Source: an uncultured Frankineae bacterium (GTDB lineage: Bacteria > Actinomycetota > Actinomycetes > Mycobacteriales > SCTD01). From it: a stretch of 42,471 nucleotides of DNA. The notes beneath the pieces are model-generated. The model searched no databases. It was not told where the DNA came from and saw only the letters and a list, made by a program, of their open reading frames with translations. The translations under genes and the position numbers were made by a program. The stretch is taken from NCBI GenBank assembly GCA_902805775.1, contig CADCUB010000055.1, positions 1 to 42,471 on the forward strand, written 5' to 3'. Positions 22,894 to 25,708 of this stretch are shown piece by piece; within the stretch, counting starts at the first letter, position 1, and every line of letters starts with the position of its first letter.

Positions 22894-23487
22894 ATGGTCC
22901 CACGACCTACCCGTGAGGTGGACATCGACAAGCAGGCGTGGCGGGCGGCGCTCCTGTCGCGCCGGGCCCGGATCGGCGCCCGGGAGCGGGCGGACACCGC
23001 CGCCGCCCTGGTGGCCGCCCTGCGCCCGCTGTCCGGCGGCGGACCGGTCGCGGCGTACGCCTCGGTGGGCACCGAACCGGACACCGGGCCGCTGCTGGCG
23101 GTCCTGCCGGAGGTCCTGCTGCCGGTGCTGCTGCCCGACGGCGACCTCGACTGGGTCCGTTGGGAGGGGGAGCTGGTCCAGGGGCCGCGCGGGCTGCGGC
23201 AGCCCCCGGGGCCGCGCCTCGGCCGCGACGCCGTCGCGGACTGCGCGGTGGTGCTCGTCCCCGCACTGGCCGTCGACGCCGAGGGCACGCGCCTGGGGCG
23301 GGGCGGCGGCTCGTACGACCGGGCCCTGGCGCGGGCCGCAGGCCTGACCGTGGCGGCGCTGCACGCCGGCGAGCTGGTGGCCCGGCTGCCGCGCGAGGCG
23401 CACGACCGGCCGGTCGGCGCCGCGGTGCTCCCGGGTCAGGGCCTGGTGCCGCTCCCGGCTCCCGACCCTGCGACGATGCCCGCGTGA
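22894..23487 (+). CDS. 5-formyltetrahydrofolate cyclo-ligase
   Basis: ATP-dependent enzyme converting 5-formyl-THF to 5,10-methenyl-THF. The 197-residue product has KQAWRAALLSRRARI at the N-terminus, AYASVGTEPDTGPLL, and the signature VPALAVDAEGTRLGRGGGSYDRAL (given across its two halves). ATG 22894 follows a GAGGGGG; GTG 22918 is an alternative start closer to the conserved helix. Its last four bases overlap the carbonic anhydrase GTG. Divergent from the GGDEF gene. The same gene neighbours ruc (Rv0991c) in Mycobacterium. Confidence 0.92.
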   Translation: MVPRPTREVDIDKQAWRAALLSRRARIGARERADTAAALVAALRPLSGGGPVAAYASVGTEPDTGPLLAVLPEVLLPVLLPDGDLDWVRWEGELVQGPRGLRQPPGPRLGRDAVADCAVVLVPALAVDAEGTRLGRGGGSYDRALARAAGLTVAALHAGELVARLPREAHDRPVGAAVLPGQGLVPLPAPDPATMPA

Positions 23488-23988: not shown

Positions 23989-24432
23989 CTACCCGCGCTC
24001 GGGCGGGTCGACCGCGATCACGCGGTGCAGTCCGCTGATCCGCAGCTCGCGGACGACGGCGGCGCTCGGGGCGCGGACCACCATCTCCCCGCCGCCGTCC
24101 CGCAGTCGTCGGTGCCCCGACACGAGGACGGCCAGCGCCGCGGACGACAGGTGGGCGACCCGCGACAGGTCGAGCACGACGCGGCGGCGCGGGGCGACGG
24201 CGTCCTCGAGCAGCGCCCGCAGCCGGTCGGCGCCCGCGGTGTCGAGATCGCTGTCGACGTCGAGGACGACCTCCTGCCGGTCGGGACGGGACGGAGGCGC
24301 CGGGGTCGGCTCCGGCCGGTCGGGACGGGACGGAGGCGCCGGGGTCGGCTCCGGCCGGGCGGCGGCGCGACGGCTCCCGGACACCGGCGCCGGGCGGGCC
24401 CTGCCGCCGCGCCCTGCCGGCGACTCGCTCAC
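23989..24432 (-). CDS. STAS-domain protein (anti-sigma antagonist-like)
   Basis: 147 residues: a Pro/Arg-rich N-terminal segment holding two perfect copies of a 13-residue unit (RPEPTPAPPSRPD), then a STAS domain from about residue 50 (VVLDVDSDLDTAGADRL, RRVVLDLSRVAHLSSAALAVL). In SpoIIAA-type antagonists the phospho-site reads D-S-x-G; here the loop is L-S-S-A-A-L, so a serine is retained while the Asp and Gly are replaced. It may still be kinase-regulated or be a constitutive binder. GTG 24432 has AGGAGG at ideal spacing; the longer ATG 24507 does not. No adjacent anti-sigma kinase or sigma factor. Confidence 0.8.
   Translation of the reverse strand: MSESPAGRGGRARPAPVSGSRRAAARPEPTPAPPSRPDRPEPTPAPPSRPDRQEVVLDVDSDLDTAGADRLRALLEDAVAPRRRVVLDLSRVAHLSSAALAVLVSGHRRLRDGGGEMVVRAPSAAVVRELRISGLHRVIAVDPPERG
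24277..24354. repeat. perfect tandem 39-bp duplication inside the STAS gene
   Basis: Copies 24277-24315 and 24316-24354 are identical and in frame, encoding the doubled 13-residue Pro-rich unit. Identity at every base, including third positions, points to a recent duplication. Confidence 0.95.
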
Positions 24433-24486: not shown

Positions 24487-24492
24487 GTACAC
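24487..24492 (+). promoter_or_regulatory. -10 box of the ruc/fmdB gene
   Basis: TACACT fits TANNNT. It directly abuts the CIRCE element, so a bound HrcA would cover the transcription start. No clear -35 box. Confidence 0.5.
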
Positions 24493-24518
24493 TGGCACTC
24501 CCGCCACTCGAGTGCCAG
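24492..24518 (+). promoter_or_regulatory. CIRCE element (HrcA operator)
   Basis: CTGGCACTC, nine bases, GAGTGCCAG: 9-bp arms and N9 spacer exactly as in the CIRCE consensus (TTAGCACTC-N9-GAGTGCTAA), with GC-biased outer bases as in actinobacterial groESL operators. It lies 16 bases before the GTG of the zinc-ribbon gene. Confidence 0.9.
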
Positions 24519-24534
24519 CCGTCGAGGAGAGACC

Positions 24535-24903
24535 GTGCCGACCTACCAGTACGCCTGCACCGCGTGCGACGAGCGACTGGAGGCGGTGCAGTCCTTCTCC
24601 GCCGCGCCGCTGACGCAGTGCCCGGCCTGCGGGGGCAGGCTGCGCAAGGTCTTCAGCGCGGTCGGTGTCGTCTTCAAGGGCTCGGGCTTCTACAAGAACG
24701 ACAGCCGCAGCAGCGCCAAGGCGAACGGGTCGTCCGACGGTGCGGGCTCGGGCGACAAGGCCTCGAGCGGCGCGGCTGCCTCGACCTCGTCGGACTCGTC
24801 GTCGGGTTCGACGGCCAGCGGTTCGTCGTCGGGATCGTCGACGTCGTCGTCCGGCGGTGGGTCGTCGGCGGCTCCGGCTGCGGCCGGGAGCAAGACCGCC
24901 TGA
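24535..24903 (+). CDS. ruc: FmdB-family zinc-ribbon chaperone, Ruc (Rv0991c) type
   Basis: 122 residues. The N-terminal half is an FmdB/CxxC zinc ribbon with C8-x2-C11 and C29-x2-C32 (PTYQYACTACDERLE, QCPACGGRLRKVFSAVG), followed by VVFKGSGFYKND. The C-terminal 70 residues are Ser/Gly/Ala-rich and surely disordered. Mycobacterial Ruc has the same build and is reported as a redox-regulated holdase whose gene is under HrcA control next to the formyl-THF cyclo-ligase. The CIRCE element and neighbourhood here reproduce that situation. GTG start with GAGGAGAG upstream. Confidence 0.85.
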   Translation: MPTYQYACTACDERLEAVQSFSAAPLTQCPACGGRLRKVFSAVGVVFKGSGFYKNDSRSSAKANGSSDGAGSGDKASSGAAASTSSDSSSGSTASGSSSGSSTSSSGGGSSAAPAAAGSKTA

Positions 24904-24963: not shown

Positions 24964-25078
24964 CTCCGCAGAGGGAGCGGGAGGTCGGAGTGGACGAGGT
25001 CGGAGCGGCCGGAGGGTCAGCGGGACACGGACGGCCCGGCCCGGGCGTCACGAGCCTGCTCCCGTGCGGAGCCCTCGC

Positions 25079-25708
25079 GTGAACCCGCCCGGCGCGGCTC
25101 CCGCGGCGGCCCGCGACCTGCGCCGCGCGCTGGCCCGGCACCGGGTGCTGCTGGCGTCCGGCCTGGCCGCAGGCGCCGTCGCGGCCGGCCTGACGACGCT
25201 CGCACCGACGCCGACCCCGACGACGCCGGTCGTCGCGGCCGCCCGTGACGTCGGCGGCGGAGCGGTGCTGTCGGCGGACGACCTGACCGTGGTCGCCGTC
25301 CCCTCCGGCCTGGCGCCGGCGGGGGCCCTGCGCGACCCGGCGCTCGCGGTGGGCCGCTCGCCGGCCGGCCCGGTGCGCCAGGGGGAGGCCCTGACCGACG
25401 TGCGCCTGCTGGGCTCCGGGCTCCTGCCGGAGGGCCCCGAGGTCGCGGCGCCGGTACGCGTCGCCGAACCCGCCATGAGCGCCCTGGTGCGGGCCGGAGA
25501 CCTGGTCGACGTGCTCGCCGCGGCGCCCGAGGGCGGCCCGGCCGCGGCGACCGTCGTGTCAGCCGTGCGCGTGCTGTCGGTGCCGCTCGCCGACGACGAC
25601 ACCGGCGAGGGGGCGCTGCTCGTCGTCGCGGCCACCCGGGCGGCCGCCGCGCGGCTGGCCGCCGCCGCCGTCACGGGTCGCCTCTCGGTGGTCGTCCACG
25701 GCCGGTGA
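25079..25708 (+). CDS. SAF-domain protein (CpaB/RcpC-like), membrane-anchored
   Basis: 209 residues with a short cytoplasmic N-terminus, one membrane helix (VLLASGLAAGAVAAGLTTL), and an extracytoplasmic part with a SAF domain (VVAAARDVGGGAVLSADDL, VGRSPAGPVRQGEALTDVRL) followed by a CpaB-like C-terminal domain (VRAGDLVDVLAAAP). CpaB/RcpC proteins belong to Flp-type pilus machines, but no pilus genes are nearby; orphan SAF proteins are common at this actinobacterial locus. GTG 25079 has GGAG eight bases upstream, better than GTG 25064. Confidence 0.8.
   Translation: MNPPGAAPAAARDLRRALARHRVLLASGLAAGAVAAGLTTLAPTPTPTTPVVAAARDVGGGAVLSADDLTVVAVPSGLAPAGALRDPALAVGRSPAGPVRQGEALTDVRLLGSGLLPEGPEVAAPVRVAEPAMSALVRAGDLVDVLAAAPEGGPAAATVVSAVRVLSVPLADDDTGEGALLVVAATRAAAARLAAAAVTGRLSVVVHGR

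What the first reader, a model, noticed from the sequence alone, without database searches (positions are those of the whole stretch)
24492..24903. HrcA-controlled redox chaperone Ruc outside mycobacteria
A full CIRCE (9-9-9) directly before a four-cysteine FmdB zinc ribbon with a long disordered Ser-rich tail, beside the formyl-THF cyclo-ligase, reproduces the Rv0991c situation. It extends the heat/oxidation-linked holdase to another actinobacterial lineage with a different tail composition.
Basis: partly seen in the sequence, partly recalled or inferred. Interest (0 to 1): 0.6.

Follow-up and report, generated by a model that had tools for sequence, protein, structure and literature searches.

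The report
HrcA-controlled Ruc chaperone gene, widely conserved
The gene is a normal relative of the tuberculosis heat- and oxidation-linked chaperone Ruc, with the operator of the heat-shock repressor HrcA in front of it; this pairing is found across most of the actinobacteria sampled, so it is real but not unusual, although this lineage appears to lack the second (oxidative-stress, SigH) switch that the tuberculosis gene has.

Summary
A perfect-arm CIRCE (CTGGCACTC-N9-GAGTGCCAG, 24492-24518) lies 16 bp before a 122-aa FmdB/Ruc-type zinc ribbon with a disordered, Ser-rich tail (24535-24903). The genome has hrcA; its other convincing CIRCE copies precede hrcA-dnaJ, groES and groEL2, so fmdB belongs to a classical HrcA regulon. 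About 0.0003 such sites are expected by chance in the genome. The gene is a Ruc ortholog by sequence, Cys spacing and operator. But HrcA control outside mycobacteria is general: 200 of 297 sampled genomes of the class (77 of 106 genera), and named Streptomyces genomes, have a CIRCE just before fmdB (reversed-pattern control: 0). The tail is not distinctive; Rv0991c itself is listed as serine-rich. The locus does not fully reproduce Rv0991c: the SigH promoter that overlaps CIRCE in mycobacteria-like genomes and Streptomyces is absent here and in all 20 family loci examined, although sigH-rsrA is present. Best model: HrcA-repressed, heat-derepressed synthesis of an oxidation-activated holdase without direct SigH input. 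Chaperone activity and induction are inferred, not shown. A new member of a known kind.

The parts
24492..24518 (+). CIRCE, operator of the heat-shock repressor HrcA (9-bp arms, 9-bp spacer, perfect arms)
   Evidence: position and arms conserved in all 20 family loci
24535..24903 (+). fmdB/ruc: FmdB-type zinc ribbon (C8, C11, C29, C32) with Ser-rich disordered tail, 122 aa, GTG start
   Evidence: PF09723 and TIGR02605 above cut-off; 65% identity over 62 aa to a mycobacteria-like ortholog; AlphaFold
24525..24529 (+). Shine-Dalgarno AGGAG of fmdB
   Evidence: sequence
24488..24493 (+). tentative -10 hexamer TACACT overlapping the first two bases of CIRCE (its -35 is poor)
   Evidence: comparison with relatives, which have CACACT/CATCAT/CACAAT at the same place; not found by the generic promoter scan; inference
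25064..25708 (+). SAF/CpaB-like gene, conserved downstream neighbour, possibly co-transcribed
   Evidence: no terminator found in the gap
23989..24432 (-). divergent STAS-domain gene; possible but unconserved second target of the operator
22894..23487 (+). 5-formyltetrahydrofolate cyclo-ligase
   Evidence: TIGR02727 107.8 bits

Best explanation
This is an ordinary ortholog of Ruc (Rv0991c). HrcA bound to the CIRCE, which lies between the likely promoter and the start codon, represses fmdB at normal temperature together with hrcA-dnaJ, groES(L) and groEL2. Heat or protein-folding stress that inactivates or removes HrcA (possibly through the Pup-proteasome, since Pup is encoded) derepresses it. 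The protein holds zinc through C8/C11/C29/C32 in a small ribbon with a disordered Ser-rich tail. By homology, oxidation of the cysteines releases zinc and makes it a holdase that hands clients to DnaK/DnaJ. Unlike in M. tuberculosis, direct SigH activation of the gene is probably absent. Shown here: operator, gene, regulon members, presence of HrcA, SigH and Pup genes, and conservation. Inferred: HrcA binding, heat induction, zinc binding, redox-switched chaperone activity, and lack of SigH input.
For: Perfect CIRCE 16 bp before fmdB; hrcA with its own CIRCE and dnaJ behind it; CIRCE before groES and groEL2 in the same genome. CIRCE stays with fmdB in 200 of 297 class genomes, reversed control 0, while neighbours change. 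Same four Cys positions and 17-residue spacing in 211 of 211 homologs, as in the Ruc residues mutated by Becker et al. (PMC7448276). HrcA repression, heat induction and oxidation-dependent holdase activity are experimentally shown for Rv0991c in that paper. No SigH box in the window or in 20 family loci, against 62 of 116 named loci.
Against: No expression, binding or biochemical data for this organism (a draft genome, 91.6% complete). Ruc function is tested only for the M. tuberculosis protein. A degenerate SigH promoter cannot be excluded, since non-consensus SigH promoters exist (PMC4803200).
Confidence: 0.8

Rival explanations
1. The HrcA operator is real, but the FmdB protein here is not a redox-switched holdase. 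It could be a zinc-ribbon regulator or zinc buffer (the older 'FmdB regulatory protein' label) that merely belongs to the heat regulon.
For: FmdB-family zinc ribbons are very widespread, and only one (Rv0991c) has been tested as a chaperone in the papers found.
Against: It is the CIRCE-bearing ortholog with the same Cys positions and a tail of the type required for Ruc activity. The second FmdB-type gene of the genome has a short different tail and no CIRCE match.
Confidence: 0.15
2. The operator mainly serves the divergent STAS gene (anti-sigma-factor antagonist), linking HrcA to a sigma-factor partner switch; fmdB is a bystander.
For: The STAS start (24432) is only 60 bp from CIRCE on the other side.
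Against: A STAS neighbour was found in only 3 of 20 other family loci, and in none of 118 named loci, all of which keep CIRCE-fmdB. The operator abuts the fmdB ribosome-binding region.
Confidence: 0.04
3. The palindrome is a chance inverted repeat in GC-rich DNA.
For: The window is 76% G+C, and GC-rich DNA is rich in inverted repeats.
Against: 0.0001-0.0003 expected per genome against 3 found. Arms are conserved while the 9-bp spacer varies. The reversed control pattern has 0 hits in 297 genomes.
Confidence: 0.01

Closest known systems
Ruc (Rv0991c), redox-regulated chaperone of Mycobacterium tuberculosis (Becker et al. 2020, PMC7448276)
   Same: Same zinc-ribbon domain, Cys 8/11/29/32, disordered Ser-rich tail, HrcA operator just before the gene, SAF-type gene downstream as in the mycobacteria-like locus examined.
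   Different: No SigH promoter overlapping CIRCE; perfect CIRCE arms instead of the CTAGCACTt left arm seen in mycobacteria-like genomes; 5-FCL two genes away; tail slightly longer (73 aa after residue 49, against about 7-61 stated in the paper).
HrcA/CIRCE (class I heat-shock) regulon
   Same: hrcA-dnaJ, groES and groEL2 carry the same operator in this genome.
   Different: fmdB is the non-chaperonin member, as already known in M. tuberculosis.
FmdB-type zinc ribbon family (TIGR02605 CxxC_CxxC_SSSS; PF09723)
   Same: Full-length domain match above cut-off, Ser-rich end as the family name says.
   Different: Nothing notable.

Membership tests
Ruc (Rv0991c) redox chaperone | N-terminal zinc ribbon with CX2C-N17-CX2C | tested here: met
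   C8, C11, C29, C32 with 17 residues between the pairs
Ruc (Rv0991c) redox chaperone | Disordered hydrophilic C-terminal tail | tested here: met
   AlphaFold pLDDT about 46-64 after residue 40; Ser/Ala/Gly-rich; prediction only
Ruc (Rv0991c) redox chaperone | HrcA binding site upstream | tested here: met
   hrcA present
Ruc (Rv0991c) redox chaperone | SigH promoter overlapping the HrcA site (M. tuberculosis control region; not a defining feature of the protein) | tested here: not met
   No GGAAYR-N16-18-GTT within 300 bp upstream; 0 of 20 family loci
Ruc (Rv0991c) redox chaperone | Oxidation-activated holdase activity, zinc binding | not testable with these tools
   needs purified protein
HrcA/CIRCE regulon | CIRCE TTAGCACTC-N9-GAGTGCTAA or its actinobacterial form at the promoter | tested here: met
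   Perfect actinobacterial form; the TTAGCACTC form does not match within 3 mismatches
HrcA/CIRCE regulon | HrcA encoded in the genome, other CIRCEs at groE/hrcA | tested here: met
HrcA/CIRCE regulon | HrcA binding and heat derepression of the gene | not testable with these tools
   needs footprint and expression data
FmdB family (TIGR02605) | Score above the curated cut-off over the full domain | tested here: met
   72.9 bits against 31.3, positions 1-52 of 52

The most novel reading that the evidence does not exclude
HrcA control of ruc is ancestral in Actinomycetota and close to general in the class, while the SigH/SigR input is an optional overlay (its -10 GTT sits on the first bases of CIRCE). 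The window's family has an HrcA-only version, so that synthesis of the redox chaperone follows protein-folding stress and redox acts only on the protein. In other lineages the fmdB CIRCE carries a recurrent single left-arm change (GCAGTC or GCAATC; GCACTT in mycobacteria-like genomes) while the right arm stays intact, perhaps tuning operator strength or giving a purine transcription start.
Probability: 0.5. Interest if true: 0.4.

Novelty: new member of a known kind. Interest (0 to 1): 0.28.

Why it matters
It moves Ruc from a mycobacterial case to a common member of the actinobacterial HrcA regulon, co-regulated with GroE. It also gives a natural comparison (HrcA plus SigH against HrcA only) for asking whether the chaperone is mainly a heat or an oxidation protein, testable in laboratory Streptomyces strains.

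Tried and rejected
The consensus TTAGCACTC-N9-GAGTGCTAA gives no hit in the window at up to 3 mismatches; the actinobacterial form is needed. The idea that the tail composition is unusual was rejected: its 38% Ser is below the 44% median of 211 homologs. STAS as the main target was rejected because it is rarely conserved beside the site. A sigma-70 promoter/terminator scan gave nothing, and the 160-nt gap to the SAF gene shows no significant fold. The solved-structure search gave only chance-level zinc-ribbon hits. Papers joining FmdB and HrcA: none in the held open-access library; curated regulon databases could not be consulted, so CIRCE-fmdB outside mycobacteria may already be listed there. 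Two failed calls were a frame error for the STAS gene, corrected.

Full report
Observation. The sequence at 24492-24518 is CTGGCACTC CCGCCACTC GAGTGCCAG, an exact 9-9-9 palindrome of the actinobacterial CIRCE form. The TTAGCACTC-type consensus does not match at up to 3 mismatches. With the window's base composition, 0.0001 (exact) to 0.0003 (Y/R-degenerate) such sites are expected in the 3.46-Mb genome. The gene starts with GTG at 24535, 16 bp after the palindrome, with AGGAG at 24525-24529, and ends at 24903. It encodes 122 aa and scores well above cut-off for Zn_ribbon_8 (PF09723) and CxxC_CxxC_SSSS (TIGR02605).

Own genome. A single hrcA (E 4e-58) has its start codon just after its own perfect CIRCE and is followed by dnaJ (by inspection of its J-domain sequence). 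The other convincing CIRCEs lie before groES (C138) and, as two neighbouring copies with GCACTC/GAGTGC cores (3 mismatches to the G-form), before groEL2. The remaining 3-mismatch hits lack intact cores and are close in number to the reversed control. A second FmdB-type gene exists (C120; MPAYDYRCRTC..., CCGGGCCG tail) with no CIRCE match near it in the genome-wide scan. The genome also carries sigH (363 bits) with an RsrA-like anti-sigma frame behind it, and Pup.

Conservation. In 297 genomes drawn from the class, HrcA is found in 295 and TIGR02605 in 294. A CIRCE with exact GCACTC/GAGTGC cores within about 65 bp of an FmdB start occurs in 82 genomes and 37 of 106 genera. Letting two left-core bases vary (GCANTY) raises this to 200 genomes and 77 genera, with 0 hits of the reversed control. 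In the window's family all 20 loci examined have it. The claim of an extension to 'another actinobacterial lineage' is therefore true but understates a general pattern.

Protein. All 211 distinct homologs collected have cysteines at 8, 11, 29 and 32 with 17 residues between the pairs (the search motif fixed C8/C11 but allowed 10-22 residues between pairs), the numbering mutated in M. tuberculosis Ruc (PMC7448276). The N-terminal part is 65% identical over 62 aa to the ruc product of G131, a mycobacteria-like genome of the same order. The 73 residues after position 49 (Ser 38%, Ala 19%, Gly 18%) hold less Ser than the family median of 44%; Rv0991c itself is listed as 'Conserved serine rich protein' (PMC4803200). 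AlphaFold gives three short strands with pLDDT 81-88 in the ribbon and a low-confidence, presumably disordered tail.

Promoter. In M. tuberculosis, HrcA and SigH sites overlap at ruc (PMC7448276), and the SigH consensus is GGAAYR-N17-18-GTT (PMC4803200). I find that box in 3 of 3 f2 (mycobacteria-like) loci and in 62 of 116 named loci (shuffle expectation 0.5); the named set is dominated by Streptomyces, so the fraction is not a phylogenetically weighted one. In 59 cases its GTT starts exactly 1 bp before CIRCE, so that the two T's are CIRCE bases. No such box is present in the 300 bp upstream of the window's gene, nor in any of 20 family loci. The same genome's sigH has a matching GGAACA-N-GTT at the 5' edge of its longest frame, upstream of its likely start, so the motif appears to be in use there. 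Instead, many family loci have a TTGGAC-like element and a CACACT/CATCAT/TACACT -10-like hexamer ending on the first T of CIRCE. The window's own -35 is poor, so this promoter is tentative.

Left-arm variation. Outside the window's family the fmdB CIRCE often departs from consensus at one left-arm base (TTGGCAgTC, TTAGCAaTC; CTAGCACTt in f2), with the right arm intact. Genomes of family f18 with this change keep 3-4 perfect sites elsewhere. The cause is not known; overlap with the transcription start is one possibility (inference).

Neighbourhood. 5-FCL is a frequent upstream neighbour in relatives and a SAF/CpaB-like gene the frequent downstream one, also in the mycobacteria-like locus, where an MscL-like gene follows (by inspection). 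In the window a carbonic-anhydrase-like gene and a divergent STAS gene stand between 5-FCL and fmdB.

Conclusion. An HrcA-controlled Ruc ortholog, by sequence a new member of a known kind. HrcA binding, heat induction and redox-chaperone function are inferred from homology. The modest new points are the class-wide conservation of the operator and the apparent absence of the SigH limb in this family.

Noticed in passing
L069-L088 and L208-L230, 27-bp CIRCE before fmdB: Recurrent single left-arm deviation (GCAGTC, GCAATC or GCACTT instead of GCACTC) with an intact right arm, in several families, while other CIRCEs of such genomes can be perfect.
   Followed up: partly
L089-L207 (named loci), immediately upstream of CIRCE: A SigH/SigR-type promoter GGAAYR-N17-GTT whose GTT overlaps the first two bases of CIRCE, common in Streptomyces and some Pseudonocardiaceae; suggests competing HrcA and SigH/SigR control there.
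   Followed up: partly
window 25064-25708; L235 2884-3543: A SAF/CpaB-like gene is a conserved downstream neighbour of fmdB in many actinobacteria, including a mycobacteria-like genome; it may be co-transcribed and so under HrcA.
   Followed up: partly
L236 908-1153 (G000:C120), minus strand: A second FmdB-type zinc ribbon with a short Cys/Gly end (CCGGGCCG) and no CIRCE; function unknown.
   Followed up: no
window 24286-24359: A near-exact tandem duplication of about 38 bp (ccggtcgggacgggacggaggcgccggggtcggctc) inside the N-terminal linker of the STAS gene.
   Followed up: no
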